Part shown: piece after piece, positions 2,112-15,517 of the stretch | Position numbering within the stretch: position 1 is the stretch's first letter | Layout of the letters: the number at the start of each line of letters is the position of its first letter | Assembly: GCA_002700765.1 (NCBI GenBank) | Contig: PAEP01000003.1 | Span: forward strand, 1-15,517 | Reading direction: 5' to 3' | DNA length: 15,517 bases | DNA from: Synechococcus sp. MED850 | Lineage (GTDB): Bacteria; Cyanobacteriota; Cyanobacteriia; PCC-6307; Cyanobiaceae | Position numbers and translations under genes: made by a program | The notes under the pieces: generated by a model | Databases searched by the model: none | What the model saw: the letters and a program-made list of their open reading frames with translations, nothing else | What the model was told of the DNA's origin: nothing

Positions 2112-2116
2112 GCATC

Positions 2117-2767: not shown

Positions 2768-3738
2768 GCCTCGCCCTGCTGGTGGATCACCTGCGCCGCC
2801 AGAGCGGACTGCTGGCCAAGCGGGACATCCGCCCGGCGGCTTCGGTGTTTAACCATCTGCCGTTTCCCCAGCTCGGCAAGGCCGGCCGGCTCGGCGACGA
2901 TGCGGCGCTGCTCCCGGCCCAGAACGGTCAGCTGTTGATGGCCTGTGAGGGCATGCATCCCGCTTTGGTGGCGGAGGATCCCTGGTTTGCCGGATGGAGC
3001 GGCGTCCTGGTCAATCTCAGTGACATCGCTGCGATGGGAGGGCGGCCGCTGGCTGTGGTGAACAGCGTCTGGACCCAGGGGCTTGATCGTCTGCAACCTC
3101 TGCTGGATGGGATGCACTTCGCCTGTGATCGCTTTGCGGTGCCGATGGTCGGTGGCCATTCCAATCAGCAGAGTCCCTACGAGGCGCTCTCCGTTGCGGT
3201 GCTCGGTGTGGCAGAGGGGCCTGTGCTGTCGGCCCGGATGGCGTCACCGGGGGATGACCTGTGGCTGCTGGTGAATCGCAGTGGTTCCTTCTACCGGCAC
3301 TACCCCTTCTGGGACGCCGCCACAGAGGCGTCCCCTGGCTTGCTTCGCTCTCACCTCAGCCTGCTTCCGGCCCTTGCCGCCGATGGCATCGTTCACGCCG
3401 CCAAGGACATCAGCATGGGTGGGCTCTGCGGCACGGCGGTGATGTTCGCGGAATCCTGCGGTCATCCCATCAGCCTCGAGCTCGATGCGATCGAGCGTCC
3501 TGATCAGGTGGAGGAACAGGCCTGGCTCACCTGCTTTCCCAGCTTCGGTTACCTGCTGGCGGTGCGTCCGTCGATGACCGGCAGGCTGACCCGGATGCTG
3601 CAGGGGGATTCGAACCTGATCTGCTGCCGGATCGGATCCTTCGGCAGCGGCCCCTGCCGGGTTGTGCTGCAGCGTTCCGGTGGCATGGAATCCCTGTGGG
3701 AAGGCAGCGAGGGTCTCACCGGGTTCGGCTGTGACTGA
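2764..3738 (+). CDS. AIR-synthase-related protein, Sll0787 family
   Basis: A 324-residue protein of the PurM/AIR synthase-related group, which includes ThiL, SelD and HypE. These use ATP to phosphorylate or activate a substrate. Visible hallmarks are GRLGDDAAL (D45, D46, a metal/ATP site), VNLSDIAAMGGRP (residues about 83-95) and, in the C-terminal half, KDISMGGLCGTAVMFAESCG. The ATG shares bases with the GNAT stop (ATGA). It is the fifth gene of the Nit1C run. It is not the housekeeping purM, since the context is wrong and the sequence lacks close resemblance. Role inferred: ATP-dependent activation of an intermediate in the unknown Nit1C pathway. Confidence 0.9.
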   Translation: MSLALLVDHLRRQSGLLAKRDIRPAASVFNHLPFPQLGKAGRLGDDAALLPAQNGQLLMACEGMHPALVAEDPWFAGWSGVLVNLSDIAAMGGRPLAVVNSVWTQGLDRLQPLLDGMHFACDRFAVPMVGGHSNQQSPYEALSVAVLGVAEGPVLSARMASPGDDLWLLVNRSGSFYRHYPFWDAATEASPGLLRSHLSLLPALAADGIVHAAKDISMGGLCGTAVMFAESCGHPISLELDAIERPDQVEEQAWLTCFPSFGYLLAVRPSMTGRLTRMLQGDSNLICCRIGSFGSGPCRVVLQRSGGMESLWEGSEGLTGFGCD

Positions 3739-3794
3739 TGAGACAGCACCAGCGGATTTGCGTGATGCAGGATCCACCAGGTCAGGTCTGAGGA

Positions 3795-4076
3795 ATGCCA
3801 GAAGTCCGATTTGAGCTGCAATGGCCTGACGGTCAATCCAGCACGTTGTATTCACCCTCCACGGTGATTCTGGAGTATCTGAAAGCCGGCGATTCCTTTC
3901 GGGTTTCTGAATTTGAATCGCTGGGCGTCAAGGCCCTTCGAGCCGCATCAGAGCGGGTTCGCGCCCGCTATGGATTTGCCTGCACACGAACAGACGAGGA
4001 GGAATCTCAGCTGCGTCAGTGGGTTGCCCGGTACAGCCCCGATGCCAGCGTGCGTGTGATCAGCCAGCTGCCCTGA
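3795..4076 (+). CDS. MSMEG_0570-family nitrogen starvation response protein
   Basis: A 93-residue protein. It starts [14 protein letters not shown], has a central [21 protein letters not shown] segment, and then a long basic helix [23 protein letters not shown]. This layout matches the small MSMEG_0570-type protein that accompanies Nit1C clusters. There is no signal peptide or membrane span. It begins 56 bases after the AIR-synthase-like gene, the largest gap within the cluster. The last bases before the ATG are purine-rich (GAGGA) but too close to be a standard ribosome binding site. Biochemical function is unknown; the name reflects family expression in nitrogen starvation. Confidence 0.87.
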
Positions 4077-4095
4077 CCCTCATTTTTTTAATCCC
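4077..4095 (+). other. Short intergenic T-tract between the Nit1C core and the DUF1348 gene
   Basis: A run of seven T residues at 4083-4089 lies between the stop of the MSMEG_0570-type gene and the start of the DUF1348 gene. The bases before it can form only a weak TCAG/CTGA stem, so it is not a convincing intrinsic terminator. It could act as a partial attenuator that lowers expression of the last two genes. Confidence 0.25.
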
Positions 4096-4563
4096 ATGAC
4101 TGGAAAACCACCGTTTCCTCCCTTCACGTTGGAAACCGCTCAGCAGAAAGCAAGGATGGCGGAAAACGCCTGGAACACCAAAGATCCGGACAAGGTTTCA
4201 CTGGCTTATACAGAGGACAGTTTCTGGCGAAACCGCAGTGAATTCATCCACGGGCGTGAGCAGATTCTTGCCTTTCTCAAGCGCAAATGGTCGACCGAAC
4301 TTGATTACAAGTTGATCAAGGAGGTATGGGCCTTTGCAGACAACAGAATCGCTGTTCGTTTTCAATATGAATGGCATGATGATTCCGGTCAATTCTTCCG
4401 TTCCCATGGCAATGAGAACTGGGAATTTTCGGACACGGGTCTGATGCGCCGGCGTGAGGCAAGCATCAATGATGTGTCGATCCAACCAGAGGATCGTCGA
4501 TTCACCTGGGGTGATGGTCCCCGGCCGGAGGATTTCCCCGGACTGACCGAATTGGGTCTCTGA
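4096..4563 (+). CDS. NTF2/SnoaL-like protein, DUF1348 family
   Basis: A 155-residue protein of the cone-shaped NTF2-like fold. The order is typical: an N-terminal helix [34 protein letters not shown], then [13 protein letters not shown], then beta-strands [27 protein letters not shown] and a tail ending in [15 protein letters not shown]. This pattern, especially FWRNR and the NENWEF strand, is characteristic of DUF1348 (PF07080). Proteins of this fold can be small enzymes or binding proteins; no catalytic role is proven. It follows the MSMEG_0570-type gene by 19 bases, across a run of seven T residues, and ends three bases before the next start. It seems to be an added member of this Nit1C operon. 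Confidence 0.85.
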
Positions 4564-4565
4564 GT

Positions 4566-5306
4566 GTGAATTTTCAGCGTCATCCGCTCCCCCAGGCGAT
4601 TCACTCCATCGCTCATCTGCGGCTGTTCGTTGAACACCACGTCTTCGCGGTGTGGGATTTCATGCTGCTGCTCAAGGCGTTGCAGCAGCATCTCGCCCCA
4701 TCCGGTGCACCCTGGGCCCCTCCACGCCACCCGAGCCTTGCCGGCCTGATCAACAGCCTTGTGGCCGAGGAGGAATGCGATTGCCTGCCGGATCATCTCG
4801 GCGGTCCCCTGCATCTCAGTCATTTCGCCATCTATCGGCGGGCGATGGATGAAATCCATGCCGATACCAGCGTGATTGATGCCGTTCTCGTCCAGGCGAT
4901 GGCTGGAGATCTCCCGGGTTCCGTGCGTCATCCGGCGATTCCTCCCTCAGCGCGTCGGTTCCTGCGGACCACCCAGGATTTGATCAGCGCGGGTGAGGTG
5001 GATGCCCTCGCCGCGGCGTTCGCCTACGGAAGGGAGTTGATCGTGCCCGATCTGTTCCGATCGCTGCTGGCCCGATTGCGCCTGCTCAATCTGCCCTGCC
5101 CCACCTTGTGCTGGTATCTCGAGCGCCATATCGAGCTCGATGGCAACAGCCATGGCCCCCTGGCGGAGCAGATGGTTCAGGCACTGGCGGGGTCGGACCC
5201 CATGGCCCATGACCGGGTCCAACGCATTCGATCACGGGTGATCGGCGATCGGGAATGCTTCTGGGATGCGATGCATGCCCAGCTGGCGGATCCCGTCATC
5301 GTTTGA
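4566..5306 (+). CDS. DUF3050 family protein
   Basis: A 246-residue, mostly helical protein. It starts with LPQAIHSIAHLRLFVEHHVFAVWDFM and carries LVAEEECDCLPD, then near the end WYLERHIELDGNSHGPL. These segments mark the DUF3050 family (PF11251), whose fold I believe to be of the heme-oxygenase-like type. H188, D192 and H196 form an H-x3-D-x3-H pattern, and E23 and H25 lie in the first helix. These could be metal ligands, though this is inference. The start is GTG 4566, two bases after the previous stop; no other in-frame start gives a better N-terminus. It is the last gene of the plus-strand operon and converges with a minus-strand gene six bases away. Function unknown. Confidence 0.84.
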   Translation: MNFQRHPLPQAIHSIAHLRLFVEHHVFAVWDFMLLLKALQQHLAPSGAPWAPPRHPSLAGLINSLVAEEECDCLPDHLGGPLHLSHFAIYRRAMDEIHADTSVIDAVLVQAMAGDLPGSVRHPAIPPSARRFLRTTQDLISAGEVDALAAAFAYGRELIVPDLFRSLLARLRLLNLPCPTLCWYLERHIELDGNSHGPLAEQMVQALAGSDPMAHDRVQRIRSRVIGDRECFWDAMHAQLADPVIV

Positions 5307-5879: not shown

Positions 5880-6044
5880 GTGGACTCGGATCTGTTGCAT
5901 CCCCGTCAGCGCTCTCTGATCGCCTCGCTTCAACTGCGCTTTCGTCTTGCTGAGCAAAAGCAGGACGTTGCAGCCAAGCAGGCCCTCTTCCGCGAGGCCA
6001 TCCATCTCGGCATCCAGCCGCATCTGTTCACCGGGTCCCGTTGA
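5880..6044 (+). CDS. Small uncharacterised protein upstream of the TIM-barrel gene
   Basis: A 54-residue frame from GTG 5880: VDSDLLHPRQRSLIASLQLRFRLAEQKQDVAAKQALFREAIHLGIQPHLFTGSR. It is almost entirely helical and charged, with no signal or metal motif. The frame is open from 5805, but residues before the GTG (MGWPVSCSRGN) do not look like protein. There is no clear ribosome binding site. Its stop overlaps the next start in a TTGA arrangement, so the pair is probably translationally coupled. That coupling is the best support that it is real. Function unknown. Confidence 0.6.
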   Translation: MDSDLLHPRQRSLIASLQLRFRLAEQKQDVAAKQALFREAIHLGIQPHLFTGSR

Positions 6045-6889
6045 CGTGTGCTCCCGTTCGATTGTTCCGGACCCTCTGGGGCTGGACCGGCTCGCTGGAG
6101 GAGGCCAGTCGCAACGCGGCTGAAACCGGCTTCGATGGAATCGAGCTGAACCTTGCCCATCCCTGTCTCTCTGCGCTTGATCCCAGTGCTCTGCGCGATC
6201 TGCTGGCTGAACGCCAACAACAGCTGATTCTTGAAATTGTCACGGGTGGGGATTACACCCCGGATCTCTCCCACACACCCCAGCACCATCTGGATCAGCT
6301 GGATCGGGCCCTCGATCGTGGCGCTCCCTTGCAGCCGTTGAAGATCAGCCTGATCACCGGAAGTGACAGCTGGCCTGAGGCGGAACAGCACCGGTTTCTT
6401 GCTGCCGTGCTCGATCGCATCGATGCTGCCCCCTGCCCGGTGCTGCTCGAAACCCATCGCAGCCGCAGCTTGTTCAACCCCTGGGTTCTGCCTCGCTGGC
6501 TGGAGCGCCACGAGCGCCTGCGGATCACCGCTGATCTCAGCCACTGGTGTGCTGTGAGCGAACGGTTGATGACGCCGGATCTGGAGCCGATTCAGGCGAT
6601 GGCGGCCCATGTTGATCACATCCACGCCCGGGTTGGTCATGCCCAGGGACCCTCCGTGTCCCACCCGTTCGCCCCGGAGTGGGCCGAGGCCCTTGAAGCC
6701 CATCGCCGCTGCTGGCAGTTGTTTCTCGATCAGCGCCCCAGCAGTGCTCCTCCGATGACGATCACGCCGGAATTCGGACCGGATGGCTACATGCCCCTGA
6801 TGCCCTTCAGCGCCGAACCACTGGCTGATGTGGCTGGGCTCAATGCCTCCATGGCGGCGTGGCTACGCACGGCCTTCACGTCGCCATAA
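6041..6889 (+). CDS. TIM-barrel protein, sugar phosphate isomerase/epimerase-like (AP endonuclease 2 family)
   Basis: A 282-residue protein of the xylose isomerase-like TIM-barrel family (PF01261). Candidate metal ligands follow the family order: E137 in PVLLETHRSR, D165 and H168 in ITADLSHW, H193/H195 in DHIHARVGH, and E244 in TPEFGPDGY. The N-terminal strands RLFRTLWGWTG and FDGIELNL also fit. Members act on sugars, inosose or related small molecules; the substrate here cannot be told. The start is TTG 6041, overlapping the upstream stop by three bases; no in-frame ATG or GTG lies nearby. The 3' end overlaps the convergent Rieske gene by 14 bases. The gene pair may answer to the CIRCE element upstream. 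Confidence 0.85.
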   Translation: MTCAPVRLFRTLWGWTGSLEEASRNAAETGFDGIELNLAHPCLSALDPSALRDLLAERQQQLILEIVTGGDYTPDLSHTPQHHLDQLDRALDRGAPLQPLKISLITGSDSWPEAEQHRFLAAVLDRIDAAPCPVLLETHRSRSLFNPWVLPRWLERHERLRITADLSHWCAVSERLMTPDLEPIQAMAAHVDHIHARVGHAQGPSVSHPFAPEWAEALEAHRRCWQLFLDQRPSSAPPMTITPEFGPDGYMPLMPFSAEPLADVAGLNASMAAWLRTAFTSP

Positions 6890-7907
6890 CCTGCGGCAGC
6901 GCTTTTTTGTAGATCGCTTGCCAGTGCAGGATGCGGCGTTCAAGGGCATGGGGGGGGCCTGGCACGAAGCCGCCGCGGTAGCCCCGCTGGGCTGATTCCA
7001 CCAGTTGTCTGTCCTCCTCCAGAAAAGCCAGCAACCCCCTCAGCCAGATGTCCATCGCTGCGGCGTCGCCGTCCGTCGCGCTCGCGAACAGTCGCAACTG
7101 CATCAGGCAGGTTTCCGGGCTGATGGGAAGAAATTCCAACAGGGCGATCCGGCCCTCCGGCCAGCTGATCAGATGCATCCAGGGAGGCAACCCGAAGGTG
7201 TGAAAGCTGCCACCGTCGGCGTGGGGTGTCACCAGCAGTGTCCCCAGCGCGCTGAACCGATGCCGATAGTGGCGAACCGGACCCTGCTCGCGATGCAGTG
7301 TCGTTGGGTGTGCCACGGCGACGTGGTAGTCGTCGAGCGTGTTGTCGTGGGCGATCTTCCAGTTGCAGTTGAGCGTGCGCTGCACCATCCGCACCTGATG
7401 CAGCGGCTGCGTCCACAGCGATTCGATTTCACGATGCACCAGCTCCAGCTGCTCTTCCAGCGGTGTCACGTCGGCTTGCAGCGCCACCCAGATCAGCGGA
7501 CCGTCCACCACACAGGGCAGAGACGTCAGCGGCCACTCCCCGCGCTGGAAGGGCTGATCGAACTCCCTCTCCCGCGCAGCGGCCATCAGTGTCCCCTCGA
7601 GGTTGTAGGTCCAGCCGTGATACGGACAGATCAGCCGACGGCAGCTGATTGGTTCCGGTTGTTCCTCCTGGAAGGCCACACCGCGATGGGGGCAGCGGTT
7701 CAGAAAGGCCCGCGGCGTACCGTCCCCCGGACGGGTCAACAACAACGGTTGATCCAGCAGCGTCAGGGCCATGCTGTGGCCCGGCGGCAGGGATGCGGCT
7801 GCCGCCAGAGGATGCCAGTAGCGCCCTGCATAGCCTTCGCAATCCCAGTGATGCACCCTCGGGTCCGTGTAAAGCCGCGCCGGCAGAAATCTCTGCACCT
7901 CGCCCAT
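6876..7907 (-). CDS. Rieske-type [2Fe-2S] non-heme iron oxygenase, alpha-subunit-like
   Basis: A 343-residue protein with both domains of a Rieske oxygenase alpha subunit. The Rieske cluster ligands are C72 and H74 (CPHRG) and C94 and H97 (CPYHGW). The catalytic domain has DNTLDDYHVAVAH, giving H195 and H200 and the bridging Asp (D192/D193), with the third iron ligand probably among E297-D299 in FLEEDRQLVESAQRG. Such enzymes hydroxylate or N/O-dealkylate small substrates using electrons from a separate reductase, which is not seen nearby. The start at ATG 7907 shares one base with the stop of the ATPase gene; the frame runs further upstream, but that part lies inside the ATPase. It is the last gene of the guanidine operon, so it may act on an imported guanidine compound (inference). 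Confidence 0.9.
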   Translation of the reverse strand: MGEVQRFLPARLYTDPRVHHWDCEGYAGRYWHPLAAAASLPPGHSMALTLLDQPLLLTRPGDGTPRAFLNRCPHRGVAFQEEQPEPISCRRLICPYHGWTYNLEGTLMAAAREREFDQPFQRGEWPLTSLPCVVDGPLIWVALQADVTPLEEQLELVHREIESLWTQPLHQVRMVQRTLNCNWKIAHDNTLDDYHVAVAHPTTLHREQGPVRHYRHRFSALGTLLVTPHADGGSFHTFGLPPWMHLISWPEGRIALLEFLPISPETCLMQLRLFASATDGDAAAMDIWLRGLLAFLEEDRQLVESAQRGYRGGFVPGPPHALERRILHWQAIYKKALPQVMAT

Positions 7908-8674
7908 CAGAGGAAGGCAGGCTCCAGTTGCCGCAGGCTGGTGGCCAGACTGCGGCGCTGCTGCAGAAACGCGCTGCTCAGGCGCAGCTGGTCCAGATCG
8001 CTTTTGTCCAACGTCACATCGAGTGAGCGGATGATCCGTCCCGGGTTGGGTGCCAGCACGTGCACCCGTTGGGCCAGCACCAGAGCTTCCTCCACATCGT
8101 GGGTGATCAGCAGCACCGTCAGCCCCGTGCGATGCCAAAGGTTCAGCAGGAAATCCTGCATCGATTCCCGGATCTGCAGATCCAGAGCACCGAACGGTTC
8201 GTCCAGCAGCAGCACACTGGGATCGGTGGCCAGGGCGCGGGCGATCGCCACCCGCTGCTGCATGCCGCCCGAAAGTTCCCGCGGCAACTTGGCGGCGGCG
8301 TCCTGTAGACCCACCACCTCGAGGAAATAGGCCGTGCGTTCACGGATTTCAGTTGCTGTCCTGCCCTGCATGCGCATGCCGAAGGCGACATTGTCAGCAG
8401 CGTTCAGCCAGGGATAAAGGCTGTATTTCTGGAACACCATGCCGCGGTCCGGGCCGGGGCCGCGAACCGGCTCCCCATCCACCAGGATCCGGCCACTGCT
8501 CGGCTGTTCCAGCCCGGCGATCAATCTCAGGATCGTGGTCTTTCCCGAGCCGGAACTCCCCACCAAGGCTGTGAAATCACCGGATTGCATCCGGAAGCTG
8601 ATGTTCTCCAGCACCGTTTTGCGTGCTTTGCCCTCCCCGAACTGCTTGCCGAGGTCTTGAATCCGAAGCTCCAT
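7907..8674 (-). CDS. ABC transporter ATP-binding protein of the guanidine operon (SsuB/TauB/NrtD type)
   Basis: A 255-residue nucleotide-binding subunit. All motifs are present: Walker A GSSGSGKTT, Q-loop in MVFQKYSLYPWL, signature LSGGMQQR, Walker B VLLLDEPFGALD and the H-loop in LLITHDVEEA. It belongs to the nitrate/sulfonate/taurine branch of importers. The start lies three bases after the permease stop, and the stop shares a base with the Rieske start. It corresponds in position to Sll1082 of Synechocystis. Linkage to guanidine hydrolase and riboswitch implies uptake of guanidine or a related cation rather than sulfonate. Confidence 0.95.
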   Translation of the reverse strand: MELRIQDLGKQFGEGKARKTVLENISFRMQSGDFTALVGSSGSGKTTILRLIAGLEQPSSGRILVDGEPVRGPGPDRGMVFQKYSLYPWLNAADNVAFGMRMQGRTATEIRERTAYFLEVVGLQDAAAKLPRELSGGMQQRVAIARALATDPSVLLLDEPFGALDLQIRESMQDFLLNLWHRTGLTVLLITHDVEEALVLAQRVHVLAPNPGRIIRSLDVTLDKSDLDQLRLSSAFLQQRRSLATSLRQLEPAFL

Positions 8675-8677
8675 GGC

Positions 8678-9505
8678 TCAGACCGCCCAGCGACAACTCA
8701 ACCGCAACAGCAACCGGAAGCTCATGTCGATCGCGAACCCGATCAATCCGAGCACGATCAGCTCAGCGAAGATCTGATCGGTGCGGAAGAAGCGTTGTGC
8801 CAGCTGGATCCGTTTGCCGAGTCCAACGTCCGCTGCCACCAGCTCCGCCACCACCACCAGGTTCCAGGAGGTGGCGATGTTGATGCGCAGGGTGTCGATG
8901 ATGCTCGGAAGGCTGTAGCGGGCCACCACCTGCACCAGCACCTGGCGGCTTCGACCACCGAGGGTGAGCGTTGTTTCAATCAGTTCCTTGGGAACGAACT
9001 TCACCGCATCCATCACCATCAGGATGTTGAAGAACACAGTCCCCAGGAAGATCAGCGCGATCTTGGGGGCTTCGCCGATCCCGAGGTAGATGATCAACAG
9101 CGGGATGAAGGCGGCTGCAGGCATGTAGCGCAACATCGCGATCAGCGGTTCACACAGCGCGCAGATCGCTGGATACACCCCCATCACGATGCCGATCGGA
9201 ACCGCGAGGAGCGTCGCCAGCAGAAAACCGCCGAACACCCGGCCAGTGCTGGCCACGATGTCCTGGAACAAAATGCCGCTCTCGGCCATGGAAGCCAGAG
9301 AGCGGAACACCGCTGCGGGAGAGGGAAGGAACTTCTCATCGACGATGCCGATCGCCGTGAACGCCGTCCAGGCCAGGAGTGGTAGGAGCAGGGAAGCCAC
9401 CTGAAGACCTCCCCGCACCGCCCGAGGTGGCGTCGCCCCGAGAGCGAAGAGTGAGAGGAGGCGAGGCCCCCCCGTCACATCGGCTGCGGGTGCCGAAGCC
9501 TGCAT
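8678..9505 (-). CDS. ABC transporter permease of the guanidine operon
   Basis: A 275-residue inner-membrane protein of the BPD_transp_1 type. Hydrophobic segments include LQVASLLLPLLAWTAFTAIGIV, GGFLLATLLAVPIGIVMGVYP, AAFIPLLIIYLGIG, IALIFLGTVFFNILMVM and IFAELIVLGLIGFAIDM. The ATPase-coupling loop is around ELIETTLTLGGRSRQVLVQVV, followed by LPSIIDTLRINIATSWNLVVVAELV, typical of SsuC/TauC/NrtB permeases. About 35 residues precede the first membrane segment. The ATG shares a base with the stop of the binding-protein gene. It corresponds in position to Sll1081. Confidence 0.95.
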   Translation of the reverse strand: MQASAPAADVTGGPRLLSLFALGATPPRAVRGGLQVASLLLPLLAWTAFTAIGIVDEKFLPSPAAVFRSLASMAESGILFQDIVASTGRVFGGFLLATLLAVPIGIVMGVYPAICALCEPLIAMLRYMPAAAFIPLLIIYLGIGEAPKIALIFLGTVFFNILMVMDAVKFVPKELIETTLTLGGRSRQVLVQVVARYSLPSIIDTLRINIATSWNLVVVAELVAADVGLGKRIQLAQRFFRTDQIFAELIVLGLIGFAIDMSFRLLLRLSCRWAV

Positions 9506-10509
9506 CAGGCGCCTGCCACGTTCTTCACGAAGCTGGGGTCAAACAGCTTGCTCAGATCGGGTTTTTCAGGGATGAATCCAACCGACACCATGAAGTCGGC
9601 CATCGACTCCGCCGCGTAAGGCATGAATTGCATGCCCTCTCCCTCACTGAAGGCTTCGAGGTTCTCCTCGATCGTGAAGAAACGGGTGCCGTCCTTGTAC
9701 TGCTCGTATTCCTCCGTGGGAATTCCGGCGCGCTTGGCCATGATCTCCTCGGATTTCTCCGGGTTCTCTGCCATGAAGGCCCGCACATCCCACCAGGTCT
9801 TGACAATCTTCTGAATATCGTCGGGTCGCTCCTTGATCAGATCACCGCTGACGGTGAGCAGATCGGGAATGGCCCCGGGATACTCCTTGGAGCTGGCGAT
9901 CACCTGGGCACCTTCGCGCTTCATGGCCGTGCCGGTGTATGGGGGAAAGGCGCCGACGGCGTCGACCTGTCCGGCTGCAAAGGCCGTGGCGGCCTGATCG
10001 GTCGGCATGCCCTTGATCACCACATCATCACGACTCAGACCCACGTCTTTGAGGGCAAGGCTGAGGAGGTAGTCATCCACAACGCCCTCTTCCACCGCCA
10101 CGGTCTTGCCCTTGAGTTCGGCGACGGAGTTGATCGACGCATCCGCAATGATCTGATCGTTGCCTGCGGAGTTGTCATTCACCAGCACCACCACTTCGCC
10201 TCCGTTTTCCCCAGGCAGGAAGGAGATGGTGTCGTTGAGCGTCTGCGAATTGCCGTCAATCTTGCCGGCGGCAAAGGTTTCCATCGACTGCAGGTATCCG
10301 TCGAACCATTTCATCTCAACGTTCACGCCGTTCTTCTCGAACAGCTTCTCCTCCACAGCGATGGCCCAGGGCCACCATCCCGCCCAGTTGCTGTAGCCGA
10401 GCACGATCGGGGTGCCGCTGACGGCCGTTGGAGTGGGCGATTTCGAACAAGCCACGGCCAGAAGAATTGCCAGCCCGGCGAAGAGAAGGTTGCGGAGTTG
10501 TTTGGTCAT
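9505..10509 (-). CDS. ABC transporter substrate-binding lipoprotein of the guanidine operon
   Basis: A 334-residue periplasmic binding protein of the NMT1/SsuA type. The N-terminus MTKQLRNLLFAGLAILLAVAC is a lipoprotein signal with the lipidated Cys at C21. The mature part has GYSNWAGWWPWAIAVEEKLFEKNGV, then MKWFDGYLQSMETFAAGKIDGNSQTLNDT, NDNSAGNDQIIAD and VGAFPPYTGTAM, all usual ligand-lining segments of this fold. The four tryptophans in the first of these could form an aromatic cage for a guanidinium ion, though this is inference. It lies 35 bases after the HypB-like gene and shares a base with the permease start. It corresponds in position to Sll1080; family-based annotation would wrongly suggest sulfonate or taurine. 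Confidence 0.93.
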   Translation of the reverse strand: MTKQLRNLLFAGLAILLAVACSKSPTPTAVSGTPIVLGYSNWAGWWPWAIAVEEKLFEKNGVNVEMKWFDGYLQSMETFAAGKIDGNSQTLNDTISFLPGENGGEVVVLVNDNSAGNDQIIADASINSVAELKGKTVAVEEGVVDDYLLSLALKDVGLSRDDVVIKGMPTDQAATAFAAGQVDAVGAFPPYTGTAMKREGAQVIASSKEYPGAIPDLLTVSGDLIKERPDDIQKIVKTWWDVRAFMAENPEKSEEIMAKRAGIPTEEYEQYKDGTRFFTIEENLEAFSEGEGMQFMPYAAESMADFMVSVGFIPEKPDLSKLFDPSFVKNVAGA

Positions 10510-10544
10510 GGCATCGGCAGGGTGGGTTCAGTGAGTGATGCAGC

Positions 10545-11249
10545 TCAGGCCTTGGCCAGAGCTGGTGTGGAGGCGTTGCGGCTGATGAGGGCCTGATGCA
10601 CCCAGTGGTGCCAGGCGTCGATCCCTTCACCGCTGAGGGCGGAGACCTCGATCACCGTGGCCTCTGGATTGATGCTGAGGATGTTGCGGCGGATCGTGGC
10701 CAGATCCACCGGGAGGTGCGGCAGCAGATCCACCTTGGTGATCAGCACCACATCCGCCTGACGGAACATCAGGGGGTACTTGAGCGGCTTGTCGTCTCCT
10801 TCCGTGACGCTCAGCAGCGCCACCTTGTGATGTTCCCCAACGTCGAATTCGGCTGGGCAGACAAGGTTGCCCACGTTCTCCACGAGCAGCAGATCGAGAT
10901 CAACGGGATCGAGACGCTGTTGCAGCAGGGTCAGGCCACCCTTCACCATGGCGGCGTCGAGGTGGCAGGCCCTGCCGGTGGTGATCGCCACAACGGGGAT
11001 GCCTACCGCCTCGAGCCGTTCGGCATCGAGCTGGGTGGTCATGTCCCCTTCCAGCACGGCCATCCTCAGGTCGGCAGCGAGGTTGGGGAGAGATCGTTCC
11101 AGAAGGGCGGTCTTGCCGGCGCCGGGACTGCTCATCAGATTGAGGCACAGCAGATCCCAGGTCCGGAAATGCGCCTGGTTGTGCTCCGCCTGGTGTTGAT
11201 TGGCTGCGAGCAGATTGAGGCCGAGGGTGTCCTCGAGAGGCATGTGCAT
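10545..11249 (-). CDS. ghaB: HypB-like GTPase, nickel chaperone for guanidine hydrolase (GhaB)
   Basis: A 234-residue SIMIBI GTPase of the HypB family. Motifs: P-loop [12 protein letters not shown] (K46), [13 protein letters not shown], the metal-site residues C95 and H96 in RACHLDA and C131 in [14 protein letters not shown], and the base-recognition motif as TKVDLL in place of NKxD. It lacks the His-rich or CxxCGC N-terminus of hydrogenase HypB. The homologue in Synechocystis (Sll1079) is needed with the HypA-like protein to load nickel into guanidine hydrolase. I chose ATG 11249, 19 bases after the HypA-like stop. ATG 11315 is an alternative that would overlap the HypA-like gene by 47 bases and add 22 residues. 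Confidence 0.9.
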
Positions 11250-11268
11250 GACTGGAGGGGTGTCGGTC

Positions 11269-11667
11269 TCAGCGAATGTTTGAAACTGCAGTGGACTCAA
11301 GTCCAGCTGCTGCATCACTGCGGTAATCGATGCTGCGGATCCGCAGTTCTCGGCCGCTGACGATCTCCTCGAGGGGATGATCGCAGCAGGGTGAGCGGTA
11401 AGCGGTCTCCGGGGTTGGTGTGTAGGTGTCGTTGCACACCACACACCGGCCGACGAAGGGAATGTCGCGGATGGTGAGCCTGGAACCATCCAGCCAGGTG
11501 CCCTGCACGGCGGCGGCATACGTGGTGATCAGCTGATCCGGTTCGACGCAGGTGAAGCCACCCACATCCAGATGAACGGTCTGCACCATTGCTGATGGAT
11601 CGTCCCTTCGATCGCGCCATTCATTCAGTGAGATCAGCAGGCACTTGGTCATGTCAACTTCGTGCAT
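11269..11667 (-). CDS. ghaA: HypA-like nickel chaperone for guanidine hydrolase (GhaA)
   Basis: A 132-residue protein of the HypA family. It starts [10 protein letters not shown], the conserved N-terminal Met-His-Glu nickel site. The zinc loop has C75 and C78 (CVVC) but the second pair reads SPCCDHP (C94, C95, with H97 nearby) in place of CxxC. The segment [15 protein letters not shown] is the usual C-terminal strand, after which about 17 further residues follow. It lies three bases after the guanidine hydrolase stop and just before the HypB-like gene. The Synechocystis counterpart is Sll1078, which delivers nickel to guanidine hydrolase rather than to hydrogenase. No hydrogenase gene is present in the window. 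Confidence 0.9.
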
Positions 11668-11670
11668 GGC

Positions 11671-12861
11671 TTATCTCCAGGCCTGATCGACGTTCATGTT
11701 GCATGCCTCATGGATCCACGCGGGTGCGGACTTGCGGGGCAGCTGACCACTCACCACCAGATGGGCCATGGCATCGCAGATGACCCGTGTCGCCATCAGT
11801 GAGGTCATGTCGCTGACGTCGTACGGGGGCGAGACCTCGACGATCTCGAGACCACACACCGGCACATTGCGTACAACAAGCTCGAGCAGTTTCAGGGCTT
11901 CACGTGGCAGCAGACCACCGGGTTCCGGCCAGCCGGTCCCGGGCACGAAGCCGGCATCGATGCAGTCGATATCAAAGGAGATGTAAACGCAGTCCGTTCC
12001 GTCAGTGGCCCGTTCGATGGCGTACTGAGCCGCAGCCTCGAGGCCCATCTCGGTGATATCGGTCACCGTGAGCACATTGGTGCCGCGCTCACGGCACACT
12101 TTCACGCCTTCCCGGGGAACCTGCCAGCCGCCGATGCCCAGCTGCACCAGGTTCTCGGCCGGGGCGTTGGCCATGTTGGTGGCGTGGAACCACGGGCAGG
12201 TGTGCATGCGTTCGTCCAGGTCGATTTCCTGGGTGTCGACATGGCGGTCGAAGTGGATGATCCCCACCTTCTTGTCGCCGAGATGACGACAGACGCCGCG
12301 CACCGTTGGAAAACCGATCGAATGATCGCCGCCGAGAATGATCGGGAAGGCGCCACTGGCGAACACGTGGGCGATGCCCTTGGAGATCTGATCGAAGCTC
12401 TTTTCGTTGTTGGCTGGAATCGTGAAGATGTCACCCACATCACAGAGGGTGATCTGTTCGCGCAGATCCACCCCCATCTCGTAGTTGTAGGGGGTGTAGA
12501 GCGCTGAGATCCGTCGGATTCCCTGGGGCCCGAAGCGGGTTCCGGGTCGGTAGGTGGTGCCGCAGTCGTGAGGAACGCCGATCACCGCGACGTCGTAGTT
12601 GCCCACCTGGTTCACGTCCTCCAGATAGGGCGCTTTCATGAACGTGTTGATGCCGGCGAAATGCGGCAGCTCTCCCCTCGAGAAGGTGGAGATGTTTCGA
12701 TCAACGATGCTTTCAGCGGCCTCGAGACCCAGGCGTTTGGCTTGATCAACTTCCTGCTGCCAGCCGGTTAGTGGGAGCTGGCGTTCCTTTTCAAGCGCCT
12801 GTATGCCTTCGCTGGGATGCGAACGCTGGAAGGGACCGTTCGGGTCCGTCGGAGATGACAT
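11671..12861 (-). CDS. gdmH: Nickel-dependent guanidine hydrolase (ureohydrolase family)
   Basis: A 396-residue enzyme that hydrolyses guanidine to urea and ammonia, close in layout to Sll1077. It has the arginase/agmatinase metal-binding set: H180 in GGDHSIGFP, D205, H207 and D209 in FDRHVDT, and D297 and D299 in SFDIDCID, followed by AGFVPGTGWPEPGG. Arg206 stands where most ureohydrolases have Ala (DAHxD). Residues 1-60 form an N-terminal extension beyond simple agmatinases, as in guanidine hydrolases. Older annotation would call it agmatinase. The support for guanidine is threefold: the riboswitch directly upstream, the HypA/HypB-like pair downstream and the transporter. ATG 12861 follows a pyrimidine-rich stretch with no Shine-Dalgarno, next to the riboswitch. 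First gene of the minus-strand operon. Confidence 0.95.
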   Translation of the reverse strand: MSSPTDPNGPFQRSHPSEGIQALEKERQLPLTGWQQEVDQAKRLGLEAAESIVDRNISTFSRGELPHFAGINTFMKAPYLEDVNQVGNYDVAVIGVPHDCGTTYRPGTRFGPQGIRRISALYTPYNYEMGVDLREQITLCDVGDIFTIPANNEKSFDQISKGIAHVFASGAFPIILGGDHSIGFPTVRGVCRHLGDKKVGIIHFDRHVDTQEIDLDERMHTCPWFHATNMANAPAENLVQLGIGGWQVPREGVKVCRERGTNVLTVTDITEMGLEAAAQYAIERATDGTDCVYISFDIDCIDAGFVPGTGWPEPGGLLPREALKLLELVVRNVPVCGLEIVEVSPPYDVSDMTSLMATRVICDAMAHLVVSGQLPRKSAPAWIHEACNMNVDQAWR

Positions 12862-12884
12862 CGGAGAGGGAGGTTGGGTTGTCG

Positions 12885-12985
12885 CGGTCTCCCGGGCTTT
12901 TGTCCCTCCGTGCAGCCGGTGAAAACCGACCCAAACCTCTCGGACCAGACACCTCGTTGGAGGCCGGAACCCTAGGTTTGCTCCG
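12885..12985 (-). ncRNA. Guanidine-I riboswitch (ykkC class)
   Basis: The minus strand carries the conserved blocks of the guanidine-I aptamer in order: CTAGGGTTCCG (12965-12975), a CCTC/GAGG hairpin, GGTCCGAGAG (12937-12946), a GCCGGTGAAAACCGAC-type hairpin on the plus strand, and ACGGAGGGACAAAAGCCCGG (12894-12913) ending in GGGAGA. Guanidine-I riboswitches bind guanidinium and turn on export or degradation genes. It ends about 24 bases before the gdmH ATG, so it most likely controls the whole operon down to the Rieske gene. No obvious intrinsic terminator with a T-run follows; control may be at translation start. Confidence 0.95.
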
Positions 12986-13280
12986 CTTGTGCATGCTCAA
13001 CAGGCCGACGCGTCACCGTGGTGTGATCGGCTACGGAATTCGCGGCATCGAGGCATGCTTGGTAGCGACCGTTACGTGACAGTTGGCTGACTGGTTTCAT
13101 GATTCCGGCCGCGTCGGGATGTTCATGAATCAGCAACCCAATCAATACGTTGAAGTGTTGGAAAATTGGATTCCTGGCATCGGTGAATGCACGGAACTGC
13201 ATGATTGCCTGCACGATCACTTCGGGCTTGACTTCAGTGTGAACAGTGAGGCGCGTCTGCTTGGTTTCCAATGTGGACAT
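12972..13280 (-). CDS. Small uncharacterised protein upstream of the guanidine operon
   Basis: A frame of about 102 residues: MSTLETKQTRLTVHTEVKPEVIVQAIMQFRAFTDARNPIFQHFNVLIGLLIHEHPDAAG and onward, ending EHAQAEQT. Codon use and composition look like a real soluble protein, with a hydrophobic helix in the middle. I do not recognise the family. The start could be ATG 13280, 13283 or 13304. The TAG stop lies within the CTAGGG block of the riboswitch, so the gene and the riboswitch overlap by about 14 bases. The opposite strand also has a long frame here, but its N-terminal half is the mirror of this one and looks less protein-like. Confidence 0.5.
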   Translation of the reverse strand: MSTLETKQTRLTVHTEVKPEVIVQAIMQFRAFTDARNPIFQHFNVLIGLLIHEHPDAAGIMKPVSQLSRNGRYQACLDAANSVADHTTVTRRPVEHAQAEQT

Positions 13281-13560
13281 CATCCAGCCAGCACCATCTT
13301 GCATGTGCTGATCTTTTGTTTGATTTCCTCAACCATTTATCCAGCCGACTATCGCAATCGTCCCTCTGATTTGCTTGATTTTTATCGCAGTTATCTGGTC
13401 GGAAAAGAATGGCAGATGGTTTCTTACTGGTTCTGCCCGCGGGATCTCCTTCATCTCGACCGGGCCAGGGAACAGCGGCCTCTATCGGTGAGGACCTCTG
13501 CCCCTCTTGAACTGGGGGGGATGAAGCCCCATCCTTGAACTCAGGCCCAGTGGCCTTTGA
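13281..13560. other. Intergenic region with short hairpins
   Basis: No convincing gene. The plus-strand frame 13083-13538 continues through here, but I consider it weak. Two hairpins lie near the right end: a GGGG/CCCC stem within 13516-13535 and GGCC-CAGT-GGCC at 13545-13556, the latter followed by TTTGATT on the plus strand. The promoter of the guanidine operon or of the 12972 gene is expected in this region, but I could not pick a clear one. Confidence 0.4.
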
Positions 13561-13767
13561 TTACGTCGCGCCGGATCCGCTGATTGGATCCAGATCTCCT
13601 TCGGCCTGACGACGACGCAGCTCCAACATCAACTGTTGCAGTTTCACTGCATTGTTGGTGTTTTCTCCCTCGGTCCAGTGCTGCGGGTGAGCTAGCCGCG
13701 TTTGAAGCTCTGCAATGTGATTGATGAGTTGTCTCGCTGGGTCCTCGGATCCTTGGAACAACCTCAC
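13561..13767 (-). CDS. Small uncharacterised helical protein
   Basis: A 68-residue frame: MRLFQGSEDPARQLINHIAELQTRLAHPQHWTEGENTNNAVKLQQLMLELRRRQAEGDLDPISGSGAT. It is predicted to form two helices with heptad-like Leu/Ile spacing joined by a His/Trp/Gly turn, which would fit a short coiled-coil or helical hairpin. No signal peptide or metal motif. Not recognised. It is the first of several small genes on the same strand, separated from the next by 162 bases containing a strong inverted repeat. Confidence 0.6.
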   Translation of the reverse strand: MRLFQGSEDPARQLINHIAELQTRLAHPQHWTEGENTNNAVKLQQLMLELRRRQAEGDLDPISGSGAT

Positions 13768-13857
13768 TATGAACGACCTGAGAGCAAGGTCACTCAGCGC
13801 TTGTACTCAAGATGGTTTTGGGCTGTCCGTAAGGACATGCCAATGGATCCACAGCCT

Positions 13858-13907
13858 TTGAACCCGATGCTGCCATCCGATCATGGAGATCCTTGCATCG
13901 GGTTCAA
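13858..13907. repeat. Perfect 13-bp inverted repeat with 24-base loop
   Basis: TTGAACCCGATGC at 13858-13870 is the exact reverse complement of GCATCGGGTTCAA at 13895-13907. The 24-base spacer holds a further CCAT/ATGG pairing. It lies between two small minus-strand genes. There is no T-run after either arm, so a simple intrinsic terminator is unlikely. It may be an RNA stem-loop, a protein-binding site or a remnant of a mobile element. Confidence 0.75.
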
Positions 13908-13929
13908 CAACGGTCAGCGAGGCATCGCT

Positions 13930-14160
13930 TCAGGCGAACGACGCATCCTGTTTTCTTACGGCTTCATGGGCCATGCGCAAACCTTCCACAACAAAGCAGT
14001 AAGCCTTGTTGCAGACCAGATAACGGCCGTTCCCGACCGCATCAATGGTGGAACCACTGGATGTGGCATAAATCCGGCTTCTGAACGCCATGGGAGCTCC
14101 GATGCTTTGAACCCACTGTTGGTGTTGTGGATTACAGAGGCAATCAGTGTTAAGGCGCAT
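13930..14160 (-). CDS. Small uncharacterised protein
   Basis: A 76-residue frame: MRLNTDCLCNPQHQQWVQSIGAPMAFRSRIYATSSGSTIDAVGNGRYLVCNKAYCFVVEGLRMAHEAVRKQDASFA. The middle part looks like a small mixed alpha/beta domain ending in an amphipathic helix, with four cysteines. I do not recognise it. The start ATG 14160 sits within a small hairpin (AAGGC/GCCTT). An inner ATG (MAFRSRIY, position 14091) is a possible alternative. Its general plan (strand, NGRYL or EGKYL, strand, helix) loosely resembles that of the gene at 14496. Confidence 0.55.
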   Translation of the reverse strand: MRLNTDCLCNPQHQQWVQSIGAPMAFRSRIYATSSGSTIDAVGNGRYLVCNKAYCFVVEGLRMAHEAVRKQDASFA

Positions 14161-14217
14161 TGCCTTCGTGCTGCCGCAACAGAGAGGCTGGAGAGGTGTG
14201 TCTCGCTTCAGCAGGAT

Positions 14218-14442
14218 TCAGACGCCACGCAGGTCTCGTTCCTCCGCTGTTAGGTACTCCTCGACAATTGGTGAGGGTTGACCCTGTTCAAGAGCCGTGA
14301 TCTCCCGCTCAATGTTCTCAACAAACAGCTGATTGCCATTTGTTTTGGCGACGTCAAGAACCAGACGCAGTCTTTCCAGTTGATCGTGGTCGGCCTGATC
14401 CGGATTCATCTCAATCTCTTCTGGTTGGTTCAGATTGATCAT
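14218..14442 (-). CDS. Small acidic uncharacterised protein
   Basis: A 74-residue, strongly acidic frame: MINLNQPEEIEMNPDQADHDQLERLRLVLDVAKTNGNQLFVENIEREITALEQGQPSPIVEEYLTAEERDLRGV. Two amphipathic helices with regular Leu/Ile spacing suggest a helical hairpin. No signal peptide or motif was recognised. The start is ATG 14442, with ATG 14409 as an alternative. It lies 57 bases from the gene at 13930 and 53 bases from the gene at 14496, on the same strand, so the three may be co-transcribed. Confidence 0.65.
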   Translation of the reverse strand: MINLNQPEEIEMNPDQADHDQLERLRLVLDVAKTNGNQLFVENIEREITALEQGQPSPIVEEYLTAEERDLRGV

Positions 14443-14495
14443 CCTGGATCAAGCCGGTCTCGATCTGTCGCGCAGAGTCTCCTTCGCGATAGGGG

Positions 14496-14720
14496 TCAGT
14501 TCCCATTCATGTCGGAGATCGCTTCATGGATGTGTCGACGGATTGCTTGGAGCACAGCTTGGTTTGCCGACATGGCATCTTCGTACAAGCCAAGGTCCCG
14601 GCACTGACCGTTCTGACAGTAGTGAGCGAGGTACTTTCCCTCGCTGGTGGTCTCGATCCACTTCCAATTGATACAGGACGGCAGAACGTGTTCTCGATGC
14701 AGTGGAATCCGTCTCGGCAT
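14496..14720 (-). CDS. Small uncharacterised protein
   Basis: A 74-residue frame: MPRRIPLHREHVLPSCINWKWIETTSEGKYLAHYCQNGQCRDLGLYEDAMSANQAVLQAIRRHIHEAISDMNGN. It looks like a small beta-rich domain (WKWIETTSEGKYLAHYC) followed by a long helix. I do not recognise the family. The start at ATG 14720 was chosen because GGGGG lies seven bases before it; ATG 14726 (adding MT) would leave that motif too close. Confidence 0.6.
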   Translation of the reverse strand: MPRRIPLHREHVLPSCINWKWIETTSEGKYLAHYCQNGQCRDLGLYEDAMSANQAVLQAIRRHIHEAISDMNGN

Positions 14721-14858
14721 GGTCATACCCCCGACAATTGTTCAATCACCGTATGCCCTTTGTGTGCTTTCTGACACCATGTTGATGGTGCTTAATGCCT
14801 ACCGATCAAGTCGGGTTGCTGCGTGTGTCGACAGTCGTGCCCGTCCTTGATCGGCCTT

Positions 14859-14884
14859 GCCCAGATGAACATGCTGTTCAGGGC
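14859..14884. other. Hairpin with TGAACA/TGTTCA palindrome
   Basis: TGAACA-TGC-TGTTCA at 14866-14880 is a perfect palindrome; outside it, GCCC (14859-14862) pairs with GGGC (14881-14884) across a three-base bulge. No T-run follows. It may be an RNA structure or an operator; I cannot say which. Confidence 0.45.
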
Positions 14885-15187
14885 CAGCACAGTGATTCAT
14901 CGGTAACGATCCGTTTGAAGATTGTTTGATCTCATCTTGTTCTCTGCTGATCGATTTGCTGTTTTATTTGATGTTTTCGAGGTGTTTAAAGTTTTTTGTG
15001 ACTGTGCTCGGATGCTGTGGGAATTGGGTGAAGCATAAGAATGTCGTTGGGTTTTACACGTCTTCTCGTTGATTTATGCAAGATTTACGGTATGAATTTA
15101 AACCTAATTTGGTAGTCAAGGTTTTGCTTGCACCATCCAGGGCTTTTAATGATGCAAGTTTCAAATCGTTTTTCGTCCAAGAAAAAA

Positions 15188-15212
15188 GGAGGCCTTAGAA
15201 CCTAAGAGCTCC
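15188..15212. terminator. Hairpin with flanking A- and T-runs, possible bidirectional terminator
   Basis: GGAG and CTTAG (15188-15198) pair with CTAAG and CTCC (15202-15212) around a short loop and a two-base internal mismatch. A run of six A residues precedes it (15182-15187) and AATTTT follows close after, so it resembles a terminator read from either side. The stem is imperfect and modest in G+C. Confidence 0.45.
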
Positions 15213-15251
15213 CTCAATTTTGGTGAATCCTAATTTTGAATTGCGGATCAC

Positions 15252-15517
15252 GTCCCTGTTGTGTTGAACGTTACCGATTTTTGGTGAACCTCTCTGGCGA
15301 AGAGCATGGTCAACACCGTCCTGATCGGATCGAGGCCCACAGATGCCTTTCAATCACAGGGTTTTTCGCCGTACTCAGCCCAACTGTCTTCCACTTCAAC
15401 AGGTCAACATTGTTTGCGTCCTTCCCGTTGCTCGTCTCTGGCAGGGTTCATCACGCTGAGCGGATGCCAAAACCATGCAATGTCTGGAGTTAAGCAGTGT
15501 TGAGTGATCCCCTGTTG
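15252..15517 (-). pseudogene. Possible decayed coding remnant
   Basis: On the minus strand, a single frame from the window edge reads DIAWFWHPLSVMNPARDEQ, stop, VEVEDSWAEYGEKPCD, stop, then KASVGLDPIRTVLTMLFAREVHQK, ending TFNTTGT and a stop. The three pieces stay in one frame and look somewhat protein-like, as expected for a gene that has gained two stop codons. It could equally be chance. I do not recognise a family. Confidence 0.22.

What the first reader, a model, noticed from the sequence alone, without database searches (positions are those of the whole stretch)
6876..12985. Complete guanidine uptake and degradation operon under a guanidine-I riboswitch
Riboswitch, gdmH, HypA-like, HypB-like, binding protein, permease, ATPase and Rieske oxygenase run in one direction with junctions of a few bases. 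The transporter and ureohydrolase would normally be annotated as sulfonate/taurine uptake and agmatinase. The riboswitch and nickel chaperones argue for guanidine instead. It points to free guanidine as a nitrogen source for a marine picocyanobacterium.
Basis: partly seen in the sequence, partly recalled or inferred. Interest (0 to 1): 0.85.

Follow-up and report, generated by a model that had tools for sequence, protein, structure and literature searches.

The report
Guanidine-use operon with extra oxygenase
A marine picocyanobacterium carries a switch-controlled set of genes to import guanidine and cut it to urea and ammonia; this set was already described in print, but its last gene (an iron oxygenase) and a neighbouring barrel-shaped protein look like an unstudied pair that may free guanidine from larger molecules.

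Summary
A guanidine-I riboswitch (88 bits, cut-off 63) precedes, on the minus strand, gdmH, hypA, hypB, a binding protein, permease, ATPase and a Rieske oxygenase. GdmH matches a solved guanidinase over 382 gap-free residues. The guanidine reading is well supported but not new: Dore et al. 2023 (PMC10119275, passages) describe this cluster in marine Synechococcus, Rieske gene included. The role of the Rieske gene is open. I find: (1) its modelled fold is nearest carnitine monooxygenase CntA; (2) in 151 family genomes it occurs only with gdmH (49 of 49) and nearly always with a xylose-isomerase-like TIM-barrel gene (48 of 49), here the convergent gene at 6041-6889; (3) proteobacterial kin of that TIM gene stand beside a different iron oxygenase, in Paraburkholderia between two guanidine-I riboswitches; (4) two cyanobacteria outside this clade also have Rieske-tailed guanidine operons. 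I propose an oxygenase plus TIM-barrel module that releases guanidine from N-alkylguanidines. The substrate is unknown; no activity was tested.

The parts
12887..12986 (-). Guanidine-I riboswitch aptamer
   Evidence: RF00442, 88.0 bits, gathering 63, E 5e-15, full length
12862..12886 (-). Short leader between aptamer and start codon; pyrimidine-rich CCTCCC could pair with GGAGGG inside the aptamer; no terminator-like site found on this strand here
   Evidence: sequence; scan; comparison of leaders; mechanism inferred, not shown
11671..12861 (-). gdmH, nickel guanidine hydrolase (guanidinase)
   Evidence: PF00491; 7esr/7oi1 767 bits, residues 15-396
11269..11667 (-). HypA-like nickel chaperone
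   Evidence: PF01155 77.8 bits; TIGR00100 68 bits, below its cut-off of 88
10545..11249 (-). HypB-like nickel GTPase (start uncertain; 11315 and 11318 also in frame)
   Evidence: TIGR00073 280 bits, cut-off 121; starts
9505..10509 (-). ABC transporter substrate-binding lipoprotein, SsuA family
   Evidence: TIGR01728 280 bits, cut-off 163.5
8678..9505 (-). ABC transporter permease
   Evidence: PF00528
7907..8674 (-). ABC transporter ATPase
   Evidence: PF00005
6876..7907 (-). Rieske non-haem iron oxygenase (343 aa), last gene of the operon
   Evidence: PF00355 and PF00848; ATG overlaps the ATPase stop; fold nearest CntA
6041..6889 (+). Xylose-isomerase-like TIM-barrel protein, convergent with the Rieske gene (14-base overlap at the ends); not under the riboswitch
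   Evidence: PF01261 31.2 bits, cut-off 31.1; co-occurrence with Rieske in 48 of 49 genomes; model pLDDT 85.9

Best explanation
This is a guanidine-induced nitrogen-scavenging operon of a marine Synechococcus-like cyanobacterium. Guanidine binds the riboswitch and turns on the operon; an ABC transporter imports guanidine; HypA- and HypB-like proteins load nickel; GdmH cuts guanidine to urea and ammonium, and a urease elsewhere in the genome finishes the job (family knowledge, no assay here). The last gene, a Rieske oxygenase whose fold is nearest the C-N-cleaving kind, most likely oxidises the carbon next to the nitrogen of an N-alkylated guanidine (methylguanidine is the simplest candidate) so that it falls apart to guanidine and an aldehyde, widening the diet of the pathway. 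The convergent TIM-barrel protein most likely acts on the oxygenase product, in the way that the unrelated lyase MgdL speeds the collapse of N-(hydroxymethyl)guanidine in Vreelandella. Shown: riboswitch match, gene order, homology, co-occurrence, predicted fold. Inferred: cargo of the transporter, nickel loading, every catalytic step, and above all the substrate of the Rieske enzyme. The number below is for the guanidine operon as such; the oxygenase plus TIM reading is about 0.4.
Confidence: 0.87

Rival explanations
1. The Rieske and TIM proteins serve another substrate that shares the operon only by convenience, for example a quaternary amine or a sulfonate imported by the same SsuA-like transporter; guanidine is only one of the cargoes.
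For: The nearest solved Rieske folds act on carnitine, gamma-butyrobetaine and stachydrine. The binding protein belongs to the SsuA family. In G218 a Rieske relative follows a different ABC transporter (permease 43%, binding protein 31% identical), away from gdmH. Distant TIM kin sit in sugar-like surroundings.
Against: The gene sits under a guanidine switch in Synechococcus and in G210 and G275, and all 8 Rieske-positive genomes of 244 in the phylum sample are gdmH-positive, 36 of 244 being so. The proteobacterial TIM kin recur at guanidino-compound loci in Paraburkholderia and Klebsiella.
Confidence: 0.25
2. The Rieske enzyme frees guanidine from a larger guanidino acid (guanidinoacetate, guanidinobutyrate, arginine-like) rather than from methylguanidine, and the TIM barrel isomerises the acid or aldehyde left over.
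For: TIM kin in Klebsiella L119 lie between a guanidinobutyrase (best solved match 3nio, E 1e-147) and a 2OG oxygenase; the homologous 2OG oxygenase of Paraburkholderia best matches a PDB entry named ethylene/succinate-forming enzyme (9ovh, E 2.6e-67); such enzymes release guanidine from arginine (PMC12186494, passages). The TIM fold is that of sugar epimerases and isomerases.
Against: The operon carries a transporter of the SsuA kind, not an amino-acid transporter as in Klebsiella L119 and Kozakia L118.
Confidence: 0.25
3. The TIM gene is a passive neighbour; only the operon matters.
For: It is convergent, not co-transcribed, and absent in the 30 Prochlorococcus-like loci.
Against: 48 of 49 co-occurrence, also within gdmH genomes, and two different relative placements; G078 keeps it although a nitrilase cluster separates the two genes.
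Confidence: 0.25
4. The operon is chiefly for detoxification of guanidine rather than nitrogen supply.
For: Guanidine is a stressor and many guanidine-switch genes encode exporters (PMC12186494, passages).
Against: The operon encodes an importer-type ABC system with a binding protein and no exporter gene; the Synechocystis homologue supports growth on guanidine as sole nitrogen source (PMC12186494, passages).
Confidence: 0.08

Closest known systems
Guanidine eCAG of marine picocyanobacteria (Syn-eCAG_001 / Pro-eCAG_004), Dore et al. ISME J 2023, PMC10119275 (passages seen; supplementary figures not seen)
   Same: ykkC switch, speB2/gdmH, hypA, hypB, TauABC-like transporter, Rieske gene downstream
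   Different: The passages seen give the Rieske gene no function beyond iron use and call it a seeming specificity against Synechocystis; the words isomerase, epimerase and TIM barrel do not occur in the main text. Here: the TIM partner, the CntA-like fold, and Rieske-tailed operons outside this clade.
Synechocystis PCC 6803 gdmH operon
   Same: Riboswitch, GdmH, nickel chaperones, ABC transporter (PMC12186494, passages); solved chain 7esr/7oi1 (its identity with the Synechocystis enzyme is recalled)
   Different: No Rieske gene in the homologous cluster, following Dore et al.
MgdH/MgdL methylguanidine demethylation, Vreelandella boliviensis, PMC12508155 (abstract and sections 3, 4, 6, 8, 10 read)
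   Same: Oxygenase plus second enzyme added to a guanidine-switch operon; the pair frees guanidine
   Different: MgdH is a 2OG/Fe(II) dioxygenase and MgdL is modelled as a beta-barrel; here a Rieske enzyme and a TIM barrel, and guanidine is then hydrolysed by GdmH instead of carboxylated
CntA carnitine monooxygenase and stachydrine demethylase
   Same: Best fold matches of the Rieske model
   Different: About 19-24% identity in the structural alignments; substrate of the window enzyme unknown
TIM plus 2OG oxygenase pair of Paraburkholderia sprentiae WSM5005 plasmid (L117)
   Same: TIM kin (39% identity) beside an iron oxygenase at a guanidine-switch locus
   Different: Oxygenase is of an unrelated family; genes annotated as urea carboxylase and its associated proteins instead of gdmH

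Membership tests
Guanidine-I (ykkC) riboswitch | Score above the Rfam gathering score over the full model | tested here: met
   88.0 bits against 63, positions 1-107
Guanidine-I (ykkC) riboswitch | Selective guanidine binding and gene control | not testable with these tools
   needs in-line probing or reporter assay
GdmH guanidine hydrolase | Closer to characterised guanidinases than to agmatinase, guanidinobutyrase or arginase | tested here: met
   7esr/7oi1 767 bits, 9fek 574 bits, next 1gq6 173 bits; that the first two are guanidinases is recalled, their PDB names read agmatinase 2
GdmH guanidine hydrolase | Metal-site segments of the ureohydrolase fold kept | tested here: met
   GGDHSIGF, HFDRHVDTQ and SFDIDCIDAGF stretches identical to the solved chain in the alignment; role of these residues recalled
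GdmH guanidine hydrolase | Nickel-dependent urea release from guanidine | not testable with these tools
   enzyme assay needed
Agmatinase (TIGR01230) | Score above the curated cut-off | tested here: met
   177 bits against 174.3: a marginal pass, outweighed; shows how the gene would be mis-named
Guanidine ABC importer | Genes fixed in a guanidine-switch gdmH operon | tested here: met
   66 of 67 loci have the order
Guanidine ABC importer | Guanidine binding by the lipoprotein | not testable with these tools
   calorimetry needed
Rieske oxygenase | Rieske [2Fe-2S] motif and mononuclear iron domain | tested here: met
   PF00355 57.6 bits, PF00848 55.4 bits; CPH and CPYH motifs, conserved HDNTLxDYHV segment
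Glycine betaine monooxygenase GbcA (NF058607) | Score above the curated cut-off | tested here: not met
   83 bits against 670; best-named family only
CntA-like C-N-cleaving Rieske group | Fold nearest CntA and stachydrine demethylase | tested here: met
   top rows of both aligners; lead over other Rieske enzymes small
CntA-like C-N-cleaving Rieske group | C-N cleavage activity | not testable with these tools
   enzyme assay needed
MgdH/MgdL methylguanidine demethylase | 2OG/Fe(II) dioxygenase plus beta-barrel lyase | tested here: not met
   the window has a Rieske enzyme and a TIM barrel; MgdL is modelled as a beta-barrel. It may still work like that pair.
Xylose-isomerase-like TIM barrel (PF01261) | Score above cut-off and TIM-barrel fold | tested here: met
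   31.2 bits against 31.1 in the window, 39.4 in L032; model matches 1yx1, 5zfs and other members

The most novel reading that the evidence does not exclude
A recurrent two-enzyme module for guanidine release: a xylose-isomerase-like TIM-barrel protein teamed with a non-homologous iron oxygenase (Rieske in picocyanobacteria, ethylene-forming-enzyme-like 2OG oxygenase in Proteobacteria) that frees guanidine from N-alkylguanidines and feeds guanidinase or guanidine carboxylase. It would be a third way, beside MgdH/MgdL and the dimethylguanidine/metformin hydrolases, in which microbes open alkylated guanidines, and would make picocyanobacteria users of this little-known nitrogen pool.
Probability: 0.38. 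Interest if true: 0.68.

Novelty: new member of a known kind. Interest (0 to 1): 0.42.

Why it matters
The operon itself confirms, in a further lineage, a published view that marine picocyanobacteria may live on guanidine. The new leads are testable: what the Rieske enzyme does was left open in the passages seen, and the conserved TIM partner turns the question into a defined two-enzyme assay. If the pair opens alkylated guanidines, the nitrogen pool that very common marine phototrophs can use is wider than guanidine itself, and the iron demand of the step could help to explain why the cluster is absent from low-iron waters, as Dore et al. report and suggest.

Tried and rejected
Agmatinase or taurine uptake as the true function: rejected and on the riboswitch, although TIGR01230 and TIGR01728 are passed.

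TIM as a homologue of the lyase MgdL: rejected, MgdL is modelled as a beta-barrel. TIM against solved sequences: no match at E 0.01; the fold search gives only the broad superfamily.

A Rieske gene in every cyanobacterial guanidine operon: rejected. Leaving out the four genomes of the phylum sample that also lie in the family sample (G004, G013, G029, G043), 32 have gdmH; 2 have the Rieske gene in the operon (G210, G275), and in the other 30 stretches read none was seen (two of these, L144 and L151, end soon after the ATPase gene, and a few lack part of the transporter). In the family sample 19 of 68 gdmH genomes lack it.

Phage-borne copies: none credible; 4 viral contigs gave only 25-27% Rieske matches and the gdmH patterns gave none. 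Plasmid copy of the window DNA from 6870 on: only short matches, the annotated ones in ABC ATPase genes.

A riboswitch in Prochlorococcus: not found at E 0.1 in 3 of 3 loci searched.

An intrinsic terminator as expression platform in the window: no terminator-like site on the minus strand behind the aptamer; mechanism left open.

Print: (and 6, 7, 89, 102) searched the held open library. Besides Dore et al., the listings of 34, 35, 122 and 128 gave five papers whose titles are on other subjects (oxidative stress, contaminants, SxtT/GxtA, metformin, an oil-field genome); these were not opened, so absence of the Rieske or TIM idea from print is judged from listings. Subscription papers, among them Funck et al. 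2022, are not held and were not read.

The statistics ignore kinship; the phylum figure rests on 8 genomes. One of five outgroup stretches fetched for the tree, L169, gave no usable frame and was dropped.
Full report
What is there. On the minus strand of the window a guanidine-I riboswitch (12986-12887, 88.0 bits, cut-off 63) is followed 25 bases later by gdmH (12861-11671), then hypA (11667-11269), hypB (from 11249, or 11315/11318, to 10545), a binding lipoprotein (10509-9505), a permease (9505-8678), an ATPase (8674-7907) and a Rieske oxygenase (7907-6876). The gap between hypB and the binding protein is 35 bp; the others are 19 bp or less, two of them overlaps of one base.

Guanidine. GdmH aligns to the PDB chain 7esr/7oi1 over residues 15-396 without a gap at 767 bits, to 9fek at 574 bits, and to the next enzyme (1gq6) at only 173 bits. 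The PDB names of the first two read 'agmatinase 2'; that they are the Synechocystis and Nitrospira guanidinases is recalled. Urease alpha is found in 15 of 16 related genomes searched; the miss, G002, is a metagenome-assembled genome (origin). No whole genome is held for the window itself.

Already in print. Dore et al. 2023 (PMC10119275; passages read) describe this cluster in Prochlorococcus and Synechococcus: the guanidinase gene speB2, the ykkC switch upstream in Synechococcus reference genomes, hypA and hypB as possible metal loaders, a TauABC-like transporter as possible guanidine importer, and a Rieske gene downstream in most Synechococcus/Cyanobium genomes that have the cluster. The main claim of the finding is therefore known. 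The window is a further member: the closest genome-borne Rieske protein seen is 72% identical (G078), the closest metagenomic one other than the window's own cluster 84%.

How widely. A scan of genome contigs with the Rieske alignment gave 123 relatives, of which the best 80 were kept: 50 Synechococcus/Cyanobium-like and 30 Prochlorococcus-like by the grouping used (three of the 30 are titled Synechococcaceae). Two of the 50 bear other names (L009 Acidiferrobacteraceae, L048 Bifidobacterium) but carry the same gene block, so they look misnamed. Of these 80, 67 have gdmH on the stretch and 66 the full order. In 151 genomes of the family of G004, Rieske orthologues (E below 1e-120; the next matches are at 4e-27) are in 49, gdmH (E at most 1e-100) in 68, the TIM gene (E at most 1e-20) in 49 and RF00442 in 67. 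All 49 Rieske genomes have gdmH. In 244 genomes of the phylum, 8 have a Rieske relative at E 1e-40, all 8 among the 36 with gdmH. Two of these, G210 and G275, which by size, distance and tree are not picocyanobacteria, have a riboswitch and end their guanidine operon in a Rieske gene about 30% identical to the window's; two others, G218 and G319, have it away from gdmH. A tree puts all 20 sequences of this cyanobacterial kind in one clade (98/96) against 8 outgroup rows (4 of them from other cyanobacterial Rieske genes), with the tool's warning about long branches. The clade shares HDNTLxDYHV at the iron site.

The TIM partner. The gene at 6041-6889 (+) ends against the Rieske gene. It is a xylose-isomerase-like TIM barrel (31.2 bits, cut-off 31.1; model pLDDT 85.9). 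In the family sample it co-occurs with the Rieske gene in 48 genomes, with one exception each way (G039, G030); the copy of G001 is in pieces with a stop. Within the 68 gdmH genomes 18 have neither. In the 50 Synechococcus-like loci it is convergent downstream in 39, divergent upstream of the operon in 8 and not seen in 3, one of which has a short flank; it is absent in 30 of 30 Prochlorococcus-like loci and from two such genomes searched whole (G006, G007). In the plasmid collection 6 records hold TIM kin. In the 4 proteobacterial ones (Paraburkholderia L117, Kozakia L118, Klebsiella L119, and Klebsiella L172, where both matches come in two pieces) a 2OG/Fe oxygenase of one family lies next door. 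In Runella and Spirosoma (about 30% identity) that gene is missing; a phytanoyl-CoA dioxygenase family gene lies 0.4 kb upstream in Runella and 3.3 kb away in Spirosoma, and the other neighbours look sugar-related. In Paraburkholderia the pair lies between two guanidine-I riboswitches, with a guanidine-II riboswitch before the carboxylase gene; L118 and L119 have no such switch. In Klebsiella L119 the gene before TIM is a guanidinobutyrase (best match 3nio, E 1e-147). The 2OG enzyme of L117 is 55% and 57% identical to those of L119 and L118 and best matches an entry called ethylene/succinate-forming enzyme. Residues kept in all 12 TIM proteins aligned include E137, D165, H168, H193 and E244; that such residues bind a metal is recalled from the superfamily.

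Reading. An oxygenase added to a guanidine-switch operon, with a second enzyme that is helpful but dispensable, is the logic of MgdH/MgdL, where MgdH hydroxylates methylguanidine and MgdL speeds the release of guanidine (PMC12508155; abstract and sections 3, 4, 6, 8 and 10 read). I think that the Rieske enzyme does the same kind of chemistry on an N-alkylguanidine and that the TIM protein works on its product. Against it: the V. boliviensis guanidine-I switch ignores methylguanidine, no electron-transfer partner is encoded in the operon, TIM is missing in several Rieske-bearing lineages, and distant TIM kin have sugar-like surroundings. The substrate cannot be told from sequence.

Other accessory gene. 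In 35 of the 50 Synechococcus-like loci a glutamine synthetase type III gene is found on the stretch (in L032 it scores 558 bits, cut-off 469.6), in all 35 together with a second type of binding protein (43-48% identical to the window's); the two loci with that binding protein but no such gene, L012 and L023, begin inside the binding-protein gene. The tie is not strict: among Rieske-less operons L090, L094, L095, L096 and L098 have this binding protein without the gene between hypB and it. One stretch outside the clade, G317, has such a gene between hypA and hypB.

Verdict. Observation confirmed, guanidine interpretation supported, already described; the accessory oxygenase plus TIM pair is a new, testable lead of middling probability.

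Noticed in passing
window 59-5306 (+): A Nit1C-type (nitrile/cyanide) cluster: Nit6803-family nitrilase 59-1027, MSMEG_0568 radical SAM 1005-2111, sll0787-like AIR synthase 2764-3738, MSMEG_0570 protein 3795-4076, then DUF1348 and DUF3050 genes. Parts of it also lie beside the Rieske or TIM gene in G126 (L085) and G078 (L160), with different arrangements.
   Followed up: partly
L011 3913-4013 and L159 7876-7976: Leaders of gdmH in two related genomes (92.7% identical DNA over 9 kb) match RF00442 at only 20.6 and 24.0 bits: helices partly kept, conserved core changed, 5 of 107 bases differing between the two. A decaying or re-tuned ykkC switch.
   Followed up: partly
   Followed up: partly
L032 4901-6286 and kin: Glutamine synthetase type III gene between hypB and the binding protein in freshwater-type operons; short or broken matches in L088 and L099. 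It may handle ammonia or methylamine set free (inference).
   Followed up: partly
L049, L052, L071: Prochlorococcus guanidine operons keep the gene order but show no riboswitch (3 of 3 searched).
   Followed up: partly
L119 6946-12985: Klebsiella chromosome-sized record: guanidinobutyrase, TIM barrel, 2OG oxygenase, amino-acid ABC transporter and class II aldolase in a row, the first two not listed in the collection's gene table; looks like an uncharacterised guanidino-compound pathway.
   Followed up: partly
L009 and L048: Contigs titled Acidiferrobacteraceae and Bifidobacterium breve carry picocyanobacterial guanidine operons; misnamed or mixed metagenome assemblies.
   Followed up: no
window 12990-15517: Region upstream of the operon has lower GC (0.51 against 0.62 in the operon) and open frames of at most 183 aa.
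   Followed up: no
L124 9282-9875 (G218): An ORF between the transporter genes and the Rieske relative reads to me like an isochorismatase-type hydrolase (by eye, not searched).
   Followed up: no
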